Assembly: GCF_945957465.1 (NCBI RefSeq)
Contig: NZ_CAMFLC010000004.1
Coordinates: 1-64,000 of the forward strand
DNA from: an uncultured Leifsonia sp.
GTDB taxonomy: Bacteria; Actinomycetota; Actinomycetes; Actinomycetales; Microbacteriaceae
Reading direction: 5' to 3'
DNA: 64,000 nt
Below the pieces are notes generated by a model, which worked only from the letters and a program-made list of their open reading frames with translations, was not told where the DNA came from and searched no databases. Positions 464 to 7,973 of this stretch are shown one piece after another; position 1 is the first letter of the stretch; every line of letters begins with the position of its first letter. The position numbers and the translations under genes were made by a program.

Positions 464-550
464 CTATCCACCGCCCGATTTCCGGGCCTGCCCCTGCCAC
501 CCGTGCCGGCGTTACAGTGAGCCATCACCGCCCGGAAGGGGATGCAGCCG

Positions 551-1936
551 ATGCCGAACATGACGAACGCGGAACTCGCTCGGCGGGTCGCAGCGCTCGA
601 AGCCGAGAACGCCGCTCTCAAGAGCCGGCTCGATGAGAACGCGACGGAGCCGCTCCCCGAGTCGACGCCGACTGTCGAGCCGAAGCACAAGCGCGGCTGG
701 GGGTGGACGCTGCTGGCGGTCGTCCTCATCGTGATCGGTGCCATCCTCGCACCGGTCGCCGTCGTCGCCTCCTGGGCCAAGGTGCAGCTCACCGACACGG
801 ACGCGTTCGTCACCACCTACGCGCCGTTGGCCAAGGATCCTGGCGTGCAGGCCTACGTCACCGATGAGGCGGTGAAGGCCATCCAGGAGCACGTCGACAT
901 CCCCCAGCTGACCTCGCAGGTGATCGACGGCATCACCGGCCTCGGCACGGGGCCGGTGGCCACGAAGGCACTGAATGCGCTGAAGGCGCCCCTCGCGCAA
1001 GGGATCGTTTCGCTGATCCAGACGACCGTCGGCCGGTTCGTGTCGTCCGACGCCTTCGCTCAGGTGTGGCAGGAAGCCCTGCGCGCGAGCCATACCCAGC
1101 TGGTGGCGACCATGCAGGGTGATCCGAAGGCGGCGGTCGCGATCGGCGCGGACGGGTCGGTCGGGGTCCAACTCGGCCCCATCATCGATCGCGTCAAACA
1201 GGTGCTGGAGGATCAGGGCATCTCGTTCGCGGCGCAGATCCCGACGATCGACAAGACGATCACGGTGGCTCAGAACTCCTCCATTCCCACGCTGCAGGTG
1301 TTCTACAACCTGGCCATCGTCGCCGGCGCGTGGCTGCCGTGGGTCTCGATCGGGCTTCTCGCACTGGGCGTGATCGTCGCTCGCCGTCGCTCGCTGGCGC
1401 TGATCGGCGCTGCGTGCGCGCTGGCCGTCGCGATGATCGTGGTGGTCGCGGGCATCGGCATCGGTCAGATCGTCTTCATCGCGTCGGCGTCACCGTCGCT
1501 CGTTCCTGCGGGGGTGGCGAGGACGCTCTACGCGACGGTCTCGACCGCCATGCAGGACACCGGGGTCGCCGTGCTGGTGCTGGCGATCGTCGTCGCCCTG
1601 GTCGCCTGGTACTCCGGTCCGTTCGGCGTGCCTCGGCGTCTGCGCGGCTTCTTCGGGTCGGGCGTGACCTGGGTGCGGGAGGCCGCCGAGCGCCATGGCA
1701 TCACCACCGGCCGCGCGGGCGAGTGGATCTACGCGCAGCGCGTCCTGCTGCGAAGCGCCGTCGCCGTGATCGCGGCGGCGGTCGTGCTGTTCGTGCGTCC
1801 GCTCACACCGTCGCTCATCATCTGGACGCTCGTGATCGCGGCGGTGGTCATCGCGATCCTGGAGCTCGTGCAGAGACCGGTCATCACCGTTCCGGAGGAC
1901 GCTGACGACGATACGCCCGTAGTAACGGCGTCGTGA
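551..1936 (+). CDS. Conserved actinobacterial integral membrane protein, unknown function
   Basis: About 461 residues. The N-terminus (residues 4-28) is a short heptad-like coiled coil rich in Ala, Leu and Glu. One membrane segment follows near residues 50-75, then an extracytoplasmic region of about 170 residues, then four or five hydrophobic segments in the C-terminal half, with an acidic tail. No catalytic motif is recognised. An in-frame ATG lies at 542, but the Shine-Dalgarno GGAAGGGG (534-541) is 9 nt from the ATG at 551, so 551 is chosen. A -10-like TACAGT sits at 513-518. The gene stands alone between the sucD terminator and the convergent ABC cassette. Role unknown. Confidence 0.75.
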   Translation: MPNMTNAELARRVAALEAENAALKSRLDENATEPLPESTPTVEPKHKRGWGWTLLAVVLIVIGAILAPVAVVASWAKVQLTDTDAFVTTYAPLAKDPGVQAYVTDEAVKAIQEHVDIPQLTSQVIDGITGLGTGPVATKALNALKAPLAQGIVSLIQTTVGRFVSSDAFAQVWQEALRASHTQLVATMQGDPKAAVAIGADGSVGVQLGPIIDRVKQVLEDQGISFAAQIPTIDKTITVAQNSSIPTLQVFYNLAIVAGAWLPWVSIGLLALGVIVARRRSLALIGAACALAVAMIVVVAGIGIGQIVFIASASPSLVPAGVARTLYATVSTAMQDTGVAVLVLAIVVALVAWYSGPFGVPRRLRGFFGSGVTWVREAAERHGITTGRAGEWIYAQRVLLRSAVAVIAAAVVLFVRPLTPSLIIWTLVIAAVVIAILELVQRPVITVPEDADDDTPVVTAS

Positions 1937-1969: not shown

Positions 1970-3043
1970 TCAACGCGCCTTGAACAGCGCGAAGAGGTCG
2001 CTCTCGCGAACGGTGGAGGCCGCTGATATAACACCGGTGACGAACAGGGCGGCGACGACTCCGGCGGAGAGTGCCAGTGCCGTAGGCAGCGAGCCGGGGT
2101 TCGCCCCCAGCACGAAGGCGAGCGCACCATAGCCCAATCCAGCAACCCCCAGCGCCGGGAGGCCGATGAGTGCGGCTTCGACAGCCATGGTTCCGGCGAC
2201 GAACGCTCGGCTCGCACCCGCGTGCAGCGAACTGGCCAACTCGAGCCGACGGGTCAGCGAGTACACGACTCCGAGGAGCAGTGCCGCGACGACGGCGGCC
2301 GTCGGGGCGAAGCGGCTGGTTCGCTCGACAAAGGCCTTCGCACCGGTGAACTCCTGTCCGACGACCGGATTCAGCGGGTCGATGGACGTCTCTTTCGACG
2401 GTGCATCGGGCGCGAGCGCGGTCAACAGGAGAGGGTCGCGGTCCCGACTGGCCGGCCAAGTGTCCGCCCAGCACTCCGATGCGGTTCCGGTCGCTGGAAC
2501 GATCGCGACGAGAGCGGACGAGAGCCGGGACGCCCCGCTGTCGCCCGGACCGGGGGCGAACGCACCGAGGACCGGCAGCGGACCTTCCCTCGTCATCAGC
2601 ACGCTGCCACGATCGGCACCGAGCTCGGCCGCGAAAGTCGTGGTGAGATACACGCCTCCGCGTCCGACATCGACGATCCCCAGGCGGGCGGCCAGCCCAC
2701 GGCTGATCTCGTAGACGGGAATTGTGCTCGACCCTGGCTCGAGAAGTACGATCGAGTCCCTCTGCGCGAGCGAGCCGGAGGCCGAGAACCCGGCGGCCGT
2801 CGGCAGCTGTTCGCAGCGGTCGCGGTCGACCGCATCGGGCGACGAGAGCACGCGCGTCGCGCCGCCCGCCGCTCGGAACGCTTCCGCCTGGCGCTCCAAC
2901 CCGTCGATCGTGAGGGTGTCGAGCAGGGCGGTCGCGACGATGACCGACGCGAGGACGGCACCGTGGATGAACGAACGCAGCGGACTGGTCGAGGCATTGC
3001 GTCGGCTCTCGCCGACGAGGGAACGGAGTCGGGTGAGCCTCAC
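1970..3043 (-). CDS. FtsX-like ABC transporter permease
   Basis: About 357 residues. One membrane segment lies near residues 25-45, followed by an extracytoplasmic domain of roughly 190 residues, then three hydrophobic segments near the C-terminus; this is the MacB/FtsX-type topology of permeases that drive extracytoplasmic work. The GTG start at 3043 overlaps the ATPase stop as GTGA (3043-3040), so the two are translationally coupled. An upstream in-frame ATG at 3100 would run 57 bases into the ATPase gene and is less likely. It is the last gene of a minus-strand cassette that starts with a small secreted peptide and two lipoproteins. Such permeases usually export or extract a lipoprotein, peptide or lipid; the substrate here is unknown. 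Confidence 0.8.
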   Translation of the reverse strand: MRLTRLRSLVGESRRNASTSPLRSFIHGAVLASVIVATALLDTLTIDGLERQAEAFRAAGGATRVLSSPDAVDRDRCEQLPTAAGFSASGSLAQRDSIVLLEPGSSTIPVYEISRGLAARLGIVDVGRGGVYLTTTFAAELGADRGSVLMTREGPLPVLGAFAPGPGDSGASRLSSALVAIVPATGTASECWADTWPASRDRDPLLLTALAPDAPSKETSIDPLNPVVGQEFTGAKAFVERTSRFAPTAAVVAALLLGVVYSLTRRLELASSLHAGASRAFVAGTMAVEAALIGLPALGVAGLGYGALAFVLGANPGSLPTALALSAGVVAALFVTGVISAASTVRESDLFALFKAR

Positions 3044-3684
3044 GATCGCGGGCCTCGCGCCAGGGCAGGAGACGCGTCGAGCGCCAGCCGACGGCTGCAC
3101 GCGACCACGGTGTCCTGATCGTGGGTCGCCACGACGACGATGGCTCCGATGCCGGCGAGCGATTGCAGCACTCCGTTCACGGTCGCTGCATTGGTGCGGT
3201 CCAATTGGGCGGTCGGCTCGTCGACCAGAAGGAGGTCGGGCTCGGCGGCGATCGCCCGGCAGAGCATCAGACGCTGCGCTTCCCCGCCGGACAGCTGGGC
3301 GAACGTCCGCTTCGCGAGGGCACGGAGTCCCAGCTCATCGAGGATGCGCTCCGCCCTCCAGGCGGCCTCCTGCCGCGGGTTGCCGCGCGCGATGATCGGG
3401 TACACGACGTGGTCGAGCACGGTGCGGCGTGCCTGGCCGTGCGGATTCTGGAAGACCCAGCCGACCGTGTCGACGCCGACGCGGCGGATATGGCCGGCGG
3501 TCGGGGATTCCCAGCCGGCGAGGAGCGAGAGCAGTGTCGATTTGCCCGATCCGGACGGCCCGGTGACAGCCCAGACGTCACCGGCCGTCAACGTCTCGGT
3601 GAGACCCTGGAAGATCGGCGAGCCGGGGCTGAAGGCGTGCGCGACGGCGTGGAGTTCCATGCGCGCGCCGCTGCCCGTGCTCAC
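3040..3684 (-). CDS. ABC transporter ATP-binding protein (LolD/MacB type)
   Basis: About 214 residues, the usual size of a lone nucleotide-binding domain. Walker A is GPSGSGKS, the signature is LSGGEAQR, Walker B is LLLVDEPTAQLD, and the H-loop is in VVATHDQD. The GTG at 3684 overlaps the stop of the upstream adaptor gene as GTGA. An internal ATG at 3660 (MELHAV) is an alternative start that would drop eight residues. It powers the adjacent FtsX-like permease. Both junctions of the three-gene set are stop/start overlaps, so adaptor, ATPase and permease are almost certainly made as one complex. Confidence 0.92.
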   Translation of the reverse strand: MSTGSGARMELHAVAHAFSPGSPIFQGLTETLTAGDVWAVTGPSGSGKSTLLSLLAGWESPTAGHIRRVGVDTVGWVFQNPHGQARRTVLDHVVYPIIARGNPRQEAAWRAERILDELGLRALAKRTFAQLSGGEAQRLMLCRAIAAEPDLLLVDEPTAQLDRTNAATVNGVLQSLAGIGAIVVVATHDQDTVVACSRRLALDASPALARGPRS

Positions 3685-4706
3685 TCGCACGCTTTCGCTG
3701 TCACCGCGGCGCCGATCCGGATGCGTTTCGGGATATCGCCTTCGAAGGTGACGAAGGAGGAGCCGAGCCGGCTCGCTACGACCCGTACGGCCGCCGTGGC
3801 TCCTGCCTCCCGTTGAACGCATCGGTTGTCCGCTACGCCGATCAGACCTCCTGGGGGGACGGCGACGACGCGAAGCGGTGCGACGAGTCGCGCCGAGACT
3901 GAGAGGGGAGAGTCCTTCGGTTTTGCGGCGTTCGCCAGATACTCCGGCGAGGCGGCGACCGCGTCGAGGACGGTGCGGTCGTCGATGACTCCGCTCTCGG
4001 GCATCGCGAACTCCTGGGCGCCGAGCCGGATGGTGCGGTCGCCCGGCACGACCGCGGTGGTCTCTCCGGTCACGAGCCTGAGCGATCGGAGGGTGCCCGG
4101 CAGCTCGACGAATGAGCTCCCGAGTTCATAGCGTTCACCGACGGCGACCTCGCACGAGGAGACCGCGACCGTTCGTGAAGGAAGCCACGCGACGGAGGAA
4201 AGCCGAAGAGTTCCATCGGCGGGTGCGATGCCGGCACGGCGCTGCACCTCCTTCACGGCGTCGCGGACCGCCGCGCTGTACCGGCCCTCGGCATCCACGT
4301 CGAATCCGAGAGCACGCAGCGCCTGCCGCAGCGCAGCCACGTCGGTTCCCTCGTCGCCCGGCGCGAGGTCGCGAAAGAGCGGCGTGCTGGTCGCGAGCGC
4401 CACGATCGGCGCGGCGTCGATGTGTGCGATCACGCCACCGTTCTCGATGGTCCGATCGGACGCGCAGCCGGACGCGGTCACCATTCCGGTGGTGTTCAGC
4501 GCGATGGCGGCGGTGCGGTCGACTTCGGCGATCAGACCCATGGACCGTTCGTCCCGGAATTCGGTTTCGTGGAGTCCGAGCGTGCGCGGGGCGGTCGGGG
4601 TCTGCAGGCTGTCGGGCGCCGATGGCGGGAAGACCGACACGAGGAGAACGCCGGCCGCCAGGCCAGCGAGCGCCGCGGCGGCTGGGAGGAGGGCGCGGCG
4701 GATCAT
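3681..4706 (-). CDS. Peptidoglycan-binding-domain protein, adaptor of the ABC export set
   Basis: 341 residues. An N-terminal membrane anchor (about residues 4-26) is followed by an extracytoplasmic part. A peptidoglycan-binding type 1 segment sits near residues 113-150, with the repeating LRQALRALGF...RYSAAVRDAVKEVQR pattern; the rest is beta-rich and HlyD/MacA-like. Such proteins bridge an FtsX-type permease to the wall in actinobacterial export clusters. The ATG has no clear Shine-Dalgarno but overlaps (ATGA) the stop of a 23-codon ORF, which could couple its translation. It is upstream of, and overlaps, the ATPase gene. The substrate is unknown; the nearby small secreted peptide and lipoproteins are the obvious candidates. 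Confidence 0.78.
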   Translation of the reverse strand: MIRRALLPAAAALAGLAAGVLLVSVFPPSAPDSLQTPTAPRTLGLHETEFRDERSMGLIAEVDRTAAIALNTTGMVTASGCASDRTIENGGVIAHIDAAPIVALATSTPLFRDLAPGDEGTDVAALRQALRALGFDVDAEGRYSAAVRDAVKEVQRRAGIAPADGTLRLSSVAWLPSRTVAVSSCEVAVGERYELGSSFVELPGTLRSLRLVTGETTAVVPGDRTIRLGAQEFAMPESGVIDDRTVLDAVAASPEYLANAAKPKDSPLSVSARLVAPLRVVAVPPGGLIGVADNRCVQREAGATAAVRVVASRLGSSFVTFEGDIPKRIRIGAAVTAKACE

Positions 4707-4774
4707 GTGGCGAGTCCGATCGCTGTGAGGGCGACGGAGGAGTGCGTGAGCTTCTTCCAGGGATGTGGATTCAT
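4703..4774 (-). CDS. Possible 23-codon leader ORF overlapping the adaptor start
   Basis: A short ORF (begins MNPHPWKKL, ends TAIGLAT) fills most of the 84-bp gap between the lipoprotein and adaptor genes and ends in ATGA, where the ATG is the adaptor start. No good ribosome-binding site was found in front of it. It may be a coupling peptide or chance. Confidence 0.2.
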   Translation of the reverse strand: MNPHPWKKLTHSSVALTAIGLAT

Positions 4775-4790
4775 GGTGCTGGGGGCCGAA

Positions 4791-5426
4791 TCAGTCTGCG
4801 AACGTGATGGTCTGGTGAGCGACGAACAGACACATCTGTGCGCGCGCGTCGCGTACGTCGAACGGAAGTGACGAGAAGTCGGTCTTTCCCTCACCGAATG
4901 AGGCCGCGAAGTCGTCGTGACCGAAGCCTTCCGGTGCAAGCCCTTCGCGTACGAGGCAGGCCGCACCGGCGGCCTCGAGGTCGCTCAGGAGATCCGGATT
5001 GCCCTGTTGAACGACGAAGAGTTCATCGATCACCACGAGAGTTCCGATTGAGCAGGCGTAGTCGATGTCCCCGAGTCGCTCGACCGTGAATTCCGCACTC
5101 GGCAGGCCGGGGGTCGCGTGGATCACGCCGTTCGGAAATCGCCGTTCGTCGGCATCGACCCCGGACCGGGCCATGCATTCGCGGTAGCGATCGTGGGCGC
5201 TCTCGTAATCCGCCTGCGAAATCGTGCCGCGCTCGCGCGCTCGAGTCAGCACGTCTGTCTCGAACTCGCTCAGGGTGCCGTTGCTGAGCTGTTCGTCGAT
5301 CAGGGCACCGAACGACGACGCGAGCTTCGCGCCGGATTCGGTCGCTTCCTGTCTAGAGCATGCGCTGGCAGTGGCGATCAGCACGATGGCAGCTGTCGCT
5401 GCCACTGTTCGCTTCCATGTCTTCAT
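4791..5426 (-). CDS. Lipoprotein, copy 1 of a tandem paralogous pair
   Basis: 211 residues. The signal peptide begins MKTWKRT and ends in a TASAC lipobox with the lipid-modified Cys at residue 23. The mature part has the pattern LSEFETDVLTRARERG, YRECM, ACSIGT, AACLVREG and DLPFDVRD-like blocks, with four cysteines besides the lipidated one. All four are conserved in the neighbouring copy, so two disulfides are likely. The ATG at 5426 has GGAAGAG (5433-5439) at good spacing; the ATG at 5429 is too close. Length is identical to copy 2 (211 residues) and most of the mature sequence aligns without gaps. Family not recognised. Its position between a secreted peptide and an ABC export set suggests an accessory or immunity-type role, which is inference. 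Confidence 0.75.
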   Translation of the reverse strand: MKTWKRTVAATAAIVLIATASACSRQEATESGAKLASSFGALIDEQLSNGTLSEFETDVLTRARERGTISQADYESAHDRYRECMARSGVDADERRFPNGVIHATPGLPSAEFTVERLGDIDYACSIGTLVVIDELFVVQQGNPDLLSDLEAAGAACLVREGLAPEGFGHDDFAASFGEGKTDFSSLPFDVRDARAQMCLFVAHQTITFAD

Positions 5427-5494
5427 CATCGACTCTTCCGTTGAGTCGGTCGGTATCGCGGCGATGCGGCGACGGGCCTTGCTCACTCTGGCCT

Positions 5495-6130
5495 TCAATC
5501 CGCGAACCCGATGACGATGCCGGCCACGTAGAGGCACATGTGCACCCGTTCGTCTCGCACGTCGAATGGGAGGTCGTCGTAGTTGGAGCCCGGTCCGTCG
5601 AAGGCTTTGGCGAACTCGTCGCGCGAGAATGATGCAGGCGCGATTCCTTCACGGACAAGACAAGCGGCGCCGGCTTCGTTTCGATCGCGGAGAAGCCCGG
5701 GGTTGCCCTGCTGAACGCTGTAGAGCTGGTCGATGGCGGCGATGGTTCCCACGCTGCATGCGAAGTCCGCATCGGCGAGATCGTCGATCGTGAACGTCTC
5801 GTCGGGACCGGGGGGAGTCGAGTGGATGATTCCGTTGGGATATCTGTGGTCTTGGGCGGCGATTCCCTTGGCAGCCATGCACTCTCGGTATCGATCGTGT
5901 GCGGTTTCGTAGTCGCTCTGCGAGATGGAGCCACGATCCTTGGCGCGAGTGAGTACTGCTGTCTCGAACTCGGTCAGGGTACCGCTGTCGAGCTCCTCCT
6001 CGATCAACGCGAGATAGGTCGCTGCGAGCTTTCCTCCCTGCGAGGGATTTGGGGAACTGCACGCAACCATCGCGAAGATGAGGACAGCTGCGCCGATCAG
6101 GGATGCGGATCGCGTGATTCGGGTCTTCAT
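5495..6130 (-). CDS. Lipoprotein, copy 2 of a tandem paralogous pair
   Basis: 211 residues. The signal peptide begins MKTRITRS and ends in the lipobox MVAC (Cys 24). It shares with copy 1 the blocks GTLTEFETAVLTRA, HDRYRECM, NGIIHSTP, VQQGNP, GAACLVREG, DDLPFDVRDER and the C-terminal FAD, including all four extra cysteines. The 68-bp gap to copy 1 carries no strong hairpin, so the two are probably co-transcribed. A strong inverted repeat (6168-6204) separates this gene from the upstream secreted peptide gene. This is a recent-looking tandem duplication in which both copies are intact, pointing to selection for two versions. Function unknown. Confidence 0.75.
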   Translation of the reverse strand: MKTRITRSASLIGAAVLIFAMVACSSPNPSQGGKLAATYLALIEEELDSGTLTEFETAVLTRAKDRGSISQSDYETAHDRYRECMAAKGIAAQDHRYPNGIIHSTPPGPDETFTIDDLADADFACSVGTIAAIDQLYSVQQGNPGLLRDRNEAGAACLVREGIAPASFSRDEFAKAFDGPGSNYDDLPFDVRDERVHMCLYVAGIVIGFAD

Positions 6131-6167
6131 TGAGGACTTTCGCTGAGAGCTTGAGAACGCTGACTAG

Positions 6168-6204
6168 ACGGGGCCGGGCGGCGCCGAAGCGCACCCGGCC
6201 CCGT
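6168..6204 (-). terminator. Inverted repeat between the peptide gene and the lipoprotein pair
   Basis: An 11-bp perfect stem ACGGGGCCGGG/CCCGGCCCCGT (6168-6178 with 6194-6204) starts 13 bases after the peptide stop. There is no T-run. It could be a full terminator or a partial one that lets the peptide be made in excess over the downstream genes. Confidence 0.65.
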
Positions 6205-6216
6205 GTTTCCCGTGGA

Positions 6217-6546
6217 TCAGCTCTGGACGAGGACGACGTTGTTGCGGTAGACGCGTGCCTTGTGCGTCGTGTTGAAGCCGAGCACCTGTGCATCGCTGTG
6301 GGACGTGCGTTTTGCACCCCAGCGGATGTCGCTTCCCAACTGGGCGTACGCCTGAAGCCAGCCGTCCTGGTTGTTGTTCGACGTCGTCCCCGCATAGGCC
6401 TCGACCCAGGACGACGACACGTAGTGCCAAATGGCCGCCTCCGCCGGCGCCGCCGTGCCCACGACGAGGCCGATCGATGCGGTTGCTGCGACCGCGCCCG
6501 CGGCGATGCGGGAGCGGAGCTTGTTCACTCTGGTGTGTTTCTTCAT
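6217..6546 (-). CDS. Small secreted cysteine-free protein (bacteriocin-like candidate)
   Basis: 109 residues. The basic N-terminus (MKKHTRVNKLRSR), a hydrophobic core and AxA site (APAEA, then AIWHYV) give a Sec signal peptide of about 37 residues. The mature product is about 72 residues, without cysteine, rich in aromatic residues (several Trp and Tyr), Asn and Ser, with net positive charge near its C-terminus. The first ATG with a plausible promoter just upstream is 6546. It is the first gene of the cassette containing two lipoproteins and an adaptor/ATPase/permease set. Size and context resemble lactococcin-972-type loci of Gram-positives, but no clear 972 signature is visible, so that assignment is only a hypothesis. 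It could also be a wall-associated structural peptide. Confidence 0.65.
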   Translation of the reverse strand: MKKHTRVNKLRSRIAAGAVAATASIGLVVGTAAPAEAAIWHYVSSSWVEAYAGTTSNNNQDGWLQAYAQLGSDIRWGAKRTSHSDAQVLGFNTTHKARVYRNNVVLVQS

Positions 6547-6569
6547 AGGCCCAGCGAAGCAGAATCTCA

Positions 6570-6597
6570 GGCATAAATGCAAGAGGTATAGATGCAA
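6570..6597 (-). promoter_or_regulatory. Promoter with a 13-bp direct repeat upstream of the secreted peptide gene
   Basis: Two copies of GGYATARATGCAA (6570-6582 and 6585-6597; 11 of 13 identical, period 15) form an AT-rich island in GC-rich DNA. The first contains the palindrome GCATAAATGC. On the minus strand they give TTGCAT-N16-TATGCC, a plausible -35/-10 about 25 bases before the ATG. The arrangement suggests cooperative binding of a regulator over the promoter, next to the divergent DUF6350 gene. Confidence 0.5.
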
Positions 6598-6683
6598 CAT
6601 GTTTGACGAAGTCCCCTGGGTCGCCGGGGGATCGAAGTGTCGAGCGGGCGGAGGCGACCGCGACCGGTAGGCTCCATCCGGTC

Positions 6684-7973
6684 ATGAGTCGCACAACCGT
6701 CGCCCTGCTCGCCGCGCTCGAGGCGGTCATCGTCGCGGCGGTCGGGATCGGGATCTGCGTGGTCGCGCTCACCGTGCTCTGGGCCGCCCAGTATCACTTG
6801 GCGGGGGACTTCATGGTGGTGTGGAGGGCCGCGGCCGATGTCTGGCTGGTGGGGCACGGCGTCAACCTGACGGTGGCGCTCGACCCGCAGACCGTCGGCA
6901 CGCTGGGGCTCCCCGGCGCCGCGGCTCCCTTCCAGGTGACGATCGCGCTCCTCGGGTTCGCCGCCCTCACGGCCGGACTCGGCGTGCGCACCGGGCTGCG
7001 CGCCGCGGAGACGCCGTACCGCCGTACCGGCGCGATCTCCGCGCTCACCGTGTTCCTCGCCGTGTCCCTGCTGGTGACGCTGACCGCCGGGAGCGCCGTG
7101 GTGACACCGTCGCTGTGGCAGGGGATCGTGCTGCCCCCCTTCGTCTACGCGCTCGGCATCGGAGTCGGCTTCGCGTTCGCAGGGCTGCGCGGCGCATCAG
7201 GGCGCGCCCCCGCACGAGCCGGTGAGCGTTCCGACGATCACGCGGGCCGCGACGACATGGCGTCGACCGGAGGGCGCGACGGCGCGGCCCCCGTCACGGT
7301 CGCCGTCCGTGCCCGGATCGACACCATCCCCGCTCCGGTCCGCGCCGGAGTGCTGGGCGCGATCCGCGCCGGGAGCGCCGCCACCGCCCTGGTCATCGGG
7401 GCGTCCGCCTTCGTCCTCGCCCTGCTCATCTTCGGCAACTACGGCGCGATCATCAGCCTCTACGAACAGCTGCAGACCGGTGTGGCCGGCGGTGTCGCCC
7501 TCACCGTGGCACAGCTCGCCTTCCTGCCCAACCTCGTGATCTGGCTCATGTCGTGGCTCGTCGGGCCCGGATTCGCGATCGGCACGGGTTCCGCGGTGAG
7601 CCCCATCGGTACCGCGCTCGGTCCGTTGCCCGGCGTGCCGCTGTTCGGTGTCATCCCGGCGCACGGGTACACGTTCGGCCTCGTCGGAGTCCTCGTGCCG
7701 CTGCTCGCCGGTTTCGTCGCGGCAGCGCTCCTGCGCGCGACCAGGCGGACGAACGCCGACGGCCCACTCGCCCTCCTGCTGACCGCGCTCGGGATCGGCG
7801 TGGTCGCGGGCATCCAGCTCGGTCTCCTCGCCTGGTGGTCGGCCGGTGCGCTCGGCCCGGGGCGCCTGCACGACGTCGGGCCGAACCCCTGGCTGGTCGG
7901 TGCGCTCGCCGCGGCGGAGGTCGGGATCGCCGCGGTCATCGGGCTGCTGGCCGGAGGGCGCGCACGACGATGA
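6684..7973 (+). CDS. DUF6350 polytopic membrane protein
   Basis: About 429 residues, mostly hydrophobic with roughly ten membrane segments, interrupted by a hydrophilic linker near residues 172-215 (rich in Arg, Ala, Gly, Asp). Position directly upstream of purN-purH and overall composition match the actinobacterial DUF6350 family, which is commonly found there; its role is not established. The start at 6684 follows a -10-like TAGGCT (6668-6673) by 10 nt and lacks a Shine-Dalgarno, so the mRNA 5' end is probably only a few bases long. The gene is divergent from the secreted peptide gene. Confidence 0.75.

What the first reader, a model, noticed from the sequence alone, without database searches (positions are those of the whole stretch)
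1970..6600. Secreted peptide, twin lipoproteins and a peptidoglycan-binding ABC export set: candidate antagonism or envelope system
Six minus-strand genes stand together: a 109-aa Sec-secreted, cysteine-free, Trp/Tyr-rich peptide under an unusual repeat-bearing promoter; two 211-aa paralogous lipoproteins with four conserved extra cysteines; then a wall-binding adaptor, ATPase and FtsX-like permease joined by GTGA overlaps. A small secreted peptide plus dedicated ABC set resembles lactococcin-972-type bacteriocin loci, but the peptide lacks an evident 972 signature and the twin lipoproteins are not a family I recognise. Hypothesis: the peptide is a toxin or wall-active factor, with lipoproteins and transporter giving immunity or delivery.
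Basis: partly seen in the sequence, partly recalled or inferred. Interest (0 to 1): 0.8.

Follow-up and report, generated by a model that had tools for sequence, protein, structure and literature searches.

The report
Bacteriocin-like peptide locus with lipoprotein module
A Leifsonia bacterium carries a small secreted peptide next to two anchored lipoproteins and a wall-binding pump, a gene set that in its relatives often accompanies peptides of a known growth-inhibiting family, so it is probably a weapon with its self-protection kit; whether it really inhibits anything has not been tested.

Summary
The six-gene minus-strand operon is real. Full-length homologues of the peptide were found only in two other Leifsonia genomes, both with the same cassette; in 20 of 20 sampled Leifsonia genomes without it the flanking genes are adjacent. 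Lipoprotein, wall-binding adaptor, ATPase and 4-TM permease form one cassette, found at 32 permease places in 16 of 28 Leifsonia genomes. Upstream of the lipoprotein (after the permease in one) lies a small secreted peptide: 26 of 31 intact, 3 broken, 2 absent. The commonest occupant is the lactococcin-972 family (TIGR01653, 14 of 24 scanned), to which the window peptide is not detectably related. In 249 Microbacteriaceae, 23 of 34 TIGR01653 places have this lipoprotein directly downstream; of seven places without it that were opened, six have the canonical large membrane protein plus ATPase. Peptide divergence follows lipoprotein divergence beyond the transporter's, as expected of a cognate immunity protein. 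Best reading: Sec-secreted bacteriocin-like peptide, specific immunity lipoproteins, MacAB-like clearing pump (the logic of NisI plus NisFEG). Activity untested.

The parts
6217..6546 (-). 109-aa Sec-secreted, Cys-free peptide (mature part about 72 aa); lineage-restricted 'D-type' occupant of the peptide slot
   Evidence: ORF and leader; relatives in L109 and L110; dN/dS 0.19 and 0.34; no Pfam, NCBIfam or PDB family
6573..6597 (-). direct repeat TTGCAT.TAT x2 (15 nt apart) in the upstream region, candidate operator or promoter element
5495..6130 (-). lipoprotein 1 (211 aa), lipobox Cys plus four conserved Cys; candidate cognate immunity lipoprotein
   Evidence: no credible Pfam/NCBIfam/PDB match; mostly helical model pLDDT 77.9, no PDB fold match at E 1e-3
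4791..5429 (-). lipoprotein 2, tandem paralogue of lipoprotein 1
   Evidence: 56% identity to lipoprotein 1; two or more lipoproteins in 7 of 44 clusters of the family sample, this one included
3681..4706 (-). membrane-anchored adaptor with peptidoglycan-binding domain (PF01471), perhaps set in a lipoyl/HlyD-like frame
   Evidence: profile 114-161 PG-binding; 56-99 weak lipoyl-like match only
3040..3684 (-). ABC ATPase, GTG start overlapping the adaptor stop (GTGA)
1970..3043 (-). 4-TM permease with large extracellular domain (MacB/FtsX-like topology), GTG start overlapping the ATPase stop
542..1936 (+). 464-aa membrane protein gene, left flank; not part of the cassette
   Evidence: in 20 of 20 sampled Leifsonia genomes without this cassette it lies directly beside the right flank
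6603..7973 (+). DUF6350 gene, right flank; not part of the cassette
   Evidence: PF19877 E 1.4e-77; empty site

Best explanation
An accessory bacteriocin-type locus. The peptide is exported by Sec (shown: leader; inferred: export) and acts outside the cell on competing, probably closely related, bacteria, most likely at the wall/membrane face, since the slot's commonest occupant is of the lipid-II-binding lactococcin 972 kind (inferred). The membrane-anchored lipoproteins bind the peptide and keep it from its target in the producer: the specificity-giving immunity proteins (inferred from covariation). The adaptor, ATPase and 4-TM permease form a MacAB-like, wall-anchored pump that takes peptide off the outer membrane face and pushes it into or past the wall (inferred from architecture and from YknWXYZ and Spr0693-0695). 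The logic is that of NisI plus NisFEG, built from parts with no sequence match to them found here.
For: Same cassette with recognised lactococcin-972 peptides: 14 of 24 slot peptides scanned in the genus match TIGR01653; a profile of 12 such peptides matches Lcn972 2LGN at 2.9e-9; two further peptide-lipoprotein pairs in this genome carry such peptides over the family cut-off. 23 of 34 TIGR01653 places in 249 Microbacteriaceae have the lipoprotein within 600 nt downstream on the same strand. Seven of the eleven without it were opened: six have a 657-709 aa ORF with 8-9 hydrophobic segments right after the peptide, then an ATPase; of four such ORFs tested three match TIGR01654 'bacteriocin-associated integral membrane protein', all below its curated cut-off: the two modules look interchangeable. 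Slot test: 23 of 31 automatically, against 1 of 30 antisense and 13 of 400 random places. Peptide distance follows lipoprotein distance with the ABC genes held constant (r 0.49, 0 of 999) but not the reverse (0.12, 211 of 999). Lipoprotein ORF open in 5 of 5 cassettes whose peptide is broken or absent. Presence/absence at one site, with cassette proteins 54-79% identical to the relatives' while the left flank is 90%.
Against: No activity data. The peptide has no detectable homology to any known bacteriocin, and its fold prediction failed (pLDDT 40.6). Eleven of 34 TIGR01653 places lack the lipoprotein, and the lipoprotein also occurs without peptide or cassette ABC genes. Partial Mantel tests are permissive (recalled) and the 14 cassettes are related. 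dN/dS is below 1 for every gene kept in the table: no sign of positive selection.
Confidence: 0.68

Rival explanations
1. Dedicated delivery: the ABC set is a maturation or export machine that moves the Sec-translocated peptide from membrane to surface, and the lipoproteins are its chaperones; self-protection lies elsewhere.
For: Lipoprotein and ABC genes share history (Mantel r 0.80-0.93 over 27 cassettes); ABC ORFs are short only in 3 of the 5 cassettes that lack an intact peptide, as if pump and peptide decay together; Spr0693-0695 has been modelled as a tube into the peptidoglycan layer (PMC5768738, passages).
Against: A Sec leader needs no dedicated exporter; the ABC genes are full-length in 2 of the 5 cassettes without an intact peptide (L086, L095), and five order-level loci (L222-L226) have lipoproteins and ABC genes with no peptide found by profile or by the secreted-ORF rule on the right strand.
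Confidence: 0.17
2. Signal or envelope-homeostasis factor: the peptide is a pheromone or wall-active factor of the producer, the lipoproteins its receptor or inhibitor.
For: Some sister cassettes lie beside response regulator or kinase genes (L071, L075, L093); purifying selection on the peptide.
Against: Accessory presence/absence at one site; slot shared with recognised bacteriocin peptides; no regulator inside this operon.
Confidence: 0.12
3. The peptide is a lactococcin 972 homologue diverged beyond recognition, so the locus is simply another Lcn972 locus with a swapped immunity module.
For: Same slot, leader and length; all-beta pattern of six strands in a very low-confidence model.
Against: No TIGR01653 or PF09683 match for it; mature profile against lcn972-like profile hhalign P 0.37; the GG.W.YG and Y.H....H signature of the lcn972-like slot peptides is not seen in it.
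Confidence: 0.3

Closest known systems
Lactococcin 972-type loci (peptide / TIGR01654 membrane protein / ATPase; streptococcin B scbABC, mediterrocin)
   Same: Sec-secreted precursor of about 100 aa first in the operon, followed by putative immunity and ABC genes; homologous cassettes carry true members of the peptide family.
   Different: Window peptide does not match the family; the large 7-9 TM protein plus ATPase is replaced by lipoprotein(s), wall-binding adaptor, ATPase and 4-TM permease.
LanI/NisI plus LanFEG lantibiotic immunity
   Same: Logic (proposed): small specific immunity lipoprotein together with an ABC pump that clears the peptide.
   Different: No sequence relation found (no credible Pfam or NCBIfam match); mostly helical Cys-bearing lipoprotein in the model; no lanthionine enzymes among the six genes; pump of MacB topology with a wall-binding adaptor.
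YknWXYZ (SDP toxin self-protection, Bacillus) and Spr0693-0695 (MacAB-like, pneumococcus)
   Same: Adaptor, separate ATPase and 4-TM permease with extracellular domain in a Gram-positive; for YknWXYZ, protection against a peptide toxin.
   Different: Adaptor here carries a PG-binding domain; lipoprotein added; permease not recognised by Pfam FtsX or MacB_PCD.

Membership tests
Lactococcin 972 peptide family (TIGR01653, PF09683) | Match to the family profile | tested here: not met
   No hit for the window peptide up to E 1; the same search rings for 14 of the 24 slot peptides scanned
Lactococcin 972 peptide family (TIGR01653, PF09683) | Remote homology to lcn972-like peptides | tested here: not met
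   hhalign P 0.37 on mature parts; full-length probability 19%, leader region mainly
Lactococcin 972 peptide family (TIGR01653, PF09683) | Beta-sandwich fold | tested here: inconclusive
   AlphaFold pLDDT 40.6, six strands; no fold search run on it
Lactococcin 972 peptide family (TIGR01653, PF09683) | Lipid II binding, septum inhibition | not testable with these tools
   needs purified peptide
Canonical Lcn972 locus | TIGR01654 integral membrane protein | tested here: not met
   none of the six window proteins matches TIGR01654 in the rows shown; 3 of 4 tested large ORFs of lipoprotein-less TIGR01653 loci do, below cut-off
Canonical Lcn972 locus | TIGR03608 ATPase above cut-off | tested here: not met
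   114.5 bits against cut-off 254.85
MacAB/YknXYZ-like (type VII) ABC system | 4-TM permease, one N-terminal and three C-terminal segments around a large extracellular domain | tested here: met
   hydropathy segments 28-46, 245-263, 280-311, 321-339
MacAB/YknXYZ-like (type VII) ABC system | FtsX / MacB_PCD profile match | tested here: not met
   0 for the window permease; 1 of 26 members each, best E 7e-4 and 2e-4
MacAB/YknXYZ-like (type VII) ABC system | HlyD/MacA-type adaptor | tested here: inconclusive
   only a weak lipoyl-like match at profile 56-99 (2jku, E 0.005); PG-binding domain clear
LanI immunity lipoproteins | Sequence match to a LanI or other known lipoprotein family | tested here: not met
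   no LanI-type family among the Pfam and NCBIfam matches of 33 members; PDB profile search best E 0.2

The most novel reading that the evidence does not exclude
A swappable-warhead bacteriocin system of Actinomycetota: a fixed module (four-Cys lipoprotein as specific immunity, wall-anchored MacAB-like pump) serves several sequence-unrelated small secreted peptides, lactococcin 972 being only the commonest and the window peptide a new class, with stand-alone lipoprotein arrays acting as orphan immunity in non-producers.
Probability: 0.45. Interest if true: 0.75.

Novelty: new variant of a known kind. Interest (0 to 1): 0.62.

Why it matters
[quoted passage not shown] Here a second module with a different make-up stands in for those genes beside peptides of the same family, with a lipoprotein that covaries with the peptide: a directly testable immunity candidate. 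The lipoprotein profile also gives a handle for finding bacteriocin-like peptides that family models miss, such as the window's.

Tried and rejected
Filing the peptide as lactococcin 972: rejected on profile and profile-profile tests. Linking it to the 'CGWARAEVGR'-type slot peptides (L140, L093, L227, L229), which looked similar by eye: scores of -1.2 to 2.0 bits one way and -0.7 to 2.2 the other, far below the best shuffles (12.8-15.4), rejected. Structure of the peptide: pLDDT 40.6, not used for a fold search. Lipoprotein fold: 0 PDB matches at E 1e-3, best 0.23. Plasmids: no match for either of two lipoproteins queried. Promoter consensus scan: none. A GCAT/ATGC excess upstream of 24 slot peptides (43 against 29.5 in shuffles, 0 of 200) exists, but a shared spaced motif was not shown (2 against 0.45, 17 of 200). 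Eight weak family-level hits of the peptide profile are leaders of other proteins, one of them (L106) a small secreted Cys-bearing protein; none has the lipoprotein in its 1.5-kb flanks. The purH row was in a wrong frame and is dropped.
Full report
What is there. The window is contig C4 of a 4.06-Mb genome; 28 genomes of its genus are held, and the two named records with the same peptide are Leifsonia (sp. TF02-11 and L. shinshuensis DP-L11). Adaptor, ATPase and permease overlap by GTGA; the two lipoproteins are 56% identical. The peptide ORF is under purifying selection (dN/dS 0.19 and 0.34, dS 0.71 and 0.87).

Distribution of the peptide. In the genus the peptide occurs in 3 of 28 genomes. 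In a family sample of 398 genomes 10 have a match at E 1e-3, but only two (own and G008; G017 is not among the rows) are full-length; the other eight are leader-region or patchy matches in other proteins, none with the lipoprotein in its 1.5-kb flanks. The genome-contig scan, which uses two short patterns and is therefore not exhaustive, gave two loci, both with the cassette; the tool may leave out the window's own record. In 20 of 20 sampled Leifsonia genomes lacking it, the 464-aa membrane protein gene and the DUF6350 gene are adjacent (-16 to 43 nt between BLAST ends); in L109 and L110 (L068 is the same record as L110) 4.5 and 3.9 kb lie between them, the cassette. Five of the 25 genomes without it were not sampled.

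The cassette. The permease query finds 32 places in 16 of 28 genomes. All 31 places outside the window were fetched; 31 of 31 have ATPase and permease matches, 30 of 31 the adaptor, the exception (L079) being a contig end. All 30 others have the lipoprotein; in one (L093) peptide and lipoprotein follow the permease. Short ABC ORFs occur in three cassettes: L071 (adaptor), L075 (ATPase, permease), L089 (adaptor, ATPase). The lipoproteins form one family: C24, C84 and C199 (lipoprotein 1 numbering) are invariant in 33 sequences, C125 and C157 kept in 90% or more. The Pfam and NCBIfam matches of the 33 are scattered and weak, and the best PDB match of the profile has E 0.2. The AlphaFold model (5 sequences) is mostly helical, pLDDT 77.9, with no PDB fold match at E 1e-3.

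Beyond the genus. In 249 Microbacteriaceae the lipoprotein profile matches 63 genomes at E 1e-3; 52 places in 33 genomes are below 1e-20 (the first look scores about a dozen candidates per genome, so these are lower bounds). TIGR01653 has 34 places in 27 genomes; 23 of 34 have the lipoprotein directly downstream. Of the eleven without, seven were opened: six (not L244) have a 657-709 aa ORF with 8-9 hydrophobic segments right after the peptide and an ATPase about 2 kb away; three of four such ORFs tested match TIGR01654 (E 1.9e-13 to 5.1e-24, all below the curated cut-off). The 44 lipoprotein clusters include 23 with TIGR01653 and 7 with two or more lipoproteins. In 297 genomes of the order 43 match at 1e-8, in 296 of the class 4 including the own genome at 1e-15. 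Of the order- and family-level loci opened, L222-L226 carry two to four lipoproteins with the ABC genes and no peptide found, L220 and L221 four and three lipoproteins without the cassette's ABC genes; other lone lipoproteins lie among unrelated genes (L234, L251).

Covariation. Distances among lipoprotein, adaptor, ATPase and permease correlate at 0.80-0.93 over 27 cassettes (0 of 999 permutations each; L071, L075, L079, L089 left out). Lipoproteins are closer within a peptide class (0.604) than between classes (0.738; 0 of 999; classes assigned by me). Over 14 lcn972-like cassettes peptide distance correlates with lipoprotein distance given the mean ABC distance at 0.49 (0 of 999), the reverse at 0.12 (211 of 999); the strongest single reverse value is for the ATPase, 0.21 (67 of 999). 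Dropping four near-duplicates gives 0.51 (2 of 999) and 0.05 (410 of 999). Partial Mantel tests are known to be too permissive (recalled), so this is support, not proof.

How it most likely works. Shown: leader, gene order and overlaps, conserved module, slot shared with recognised bacteriocin peptides, covariation. Inferred: co-transcription, toxicity, immunity by lipoprotein binding, clearance by the pump. [quoted passage not shown] mediterrocin has a signal peptide, and its locus a DUF1430 seven-TM protein thought to confer immunity (PMC12345188); most partial streptococcin clusters lack the bacteriocin gene and keep immunity and/or transporter genes (PMC6120550), to be compared with 5 of 31 cassettes here, of which two keep full-length ABC genes; YknWXYZ protects against SDP (PMC4887032, abstract and outline); Spr0693-0695 is a MacAB-like pump with four TM helices per permease subunit (PMC5768738); LanI lipoproteins are highly specific and NisI binds nisin (PMC7530257; NisFEG as partner pump is recalled). 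Lcn972-like operons in Brevibacterium with two transmembrane proteins and an ATPase (PMC5719810) and in Curtobacterium with ABC and hypothetical genes (PMC10456417) have been reported, so parts of this module have probably been seen without being named.

Novelty. Searches for lactococcin 972 with ABC transporter, peptidoglycan-binding, lipoprotein, immunity, lipid II, Leifsonia, Microbacteriaceae and other actinobacterial genera, and for immunity lipoproteins, showed no listing that announces this lipoprotein; only open PMC papers are held and most listed papers were not opened. I therefore rate it a new variant of a known kind: a bacteriocin-type locus with an accessory module that I could not find described, and an unclassified peptide.

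Noticed in passing
L220-L226 (unnamed order-level genomes): Two to four copies of the lipoprotein side by side, in some loci on both strands, with ABC genes but no peptide found (L222-L226) or without the cassette's ABC genes (L220, L221): look like orphan immunity arrays.
   Followed up: partly
L086, L089, L095 peptide slots: Peptide gene broken while the lipoprotein ORF stays open (L089 lipoprotein has lost one conserved Cys, and its adaptor and ATPase ORFs are short).
   Followed up: partly
L071, L075, L093 near the cassette: Response regulator and kinase-like genes beside the cassette; L071 and L075 have no peptide and an extra small lipoprotein before the adaptor.
   Followed up: no
G000:C81 end (L099) and G000:C63 end (L079): A lactococcin-972-like peptide plus lipoprotein near one contig end and ATPase plus permease near another: possibly one cassette split by assembly.
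   Followed up: no
L251 5669-6238: Lone lipoprotein gene near purH/purN-like genes, perhaps the same chromosomal neighbourhood as the window cassette.
   Followed up: no
window 6573-6597 and upstream regions of 23 sister peptides: GCAT/ATGC tetramers are over-represented in the 90 nt before the peptide start codons (43 against 29.5 in shuffles), perhaps a shared regulator.
   Followed up: partly
L229 5257-6881, L238, L248: Peptide-lipoprotein pairs with a gap of about 1 kb before the ABC genes (L229) or with none of the cassette's ABC genes found in the stretch (L238, L248).
   Followed up: no
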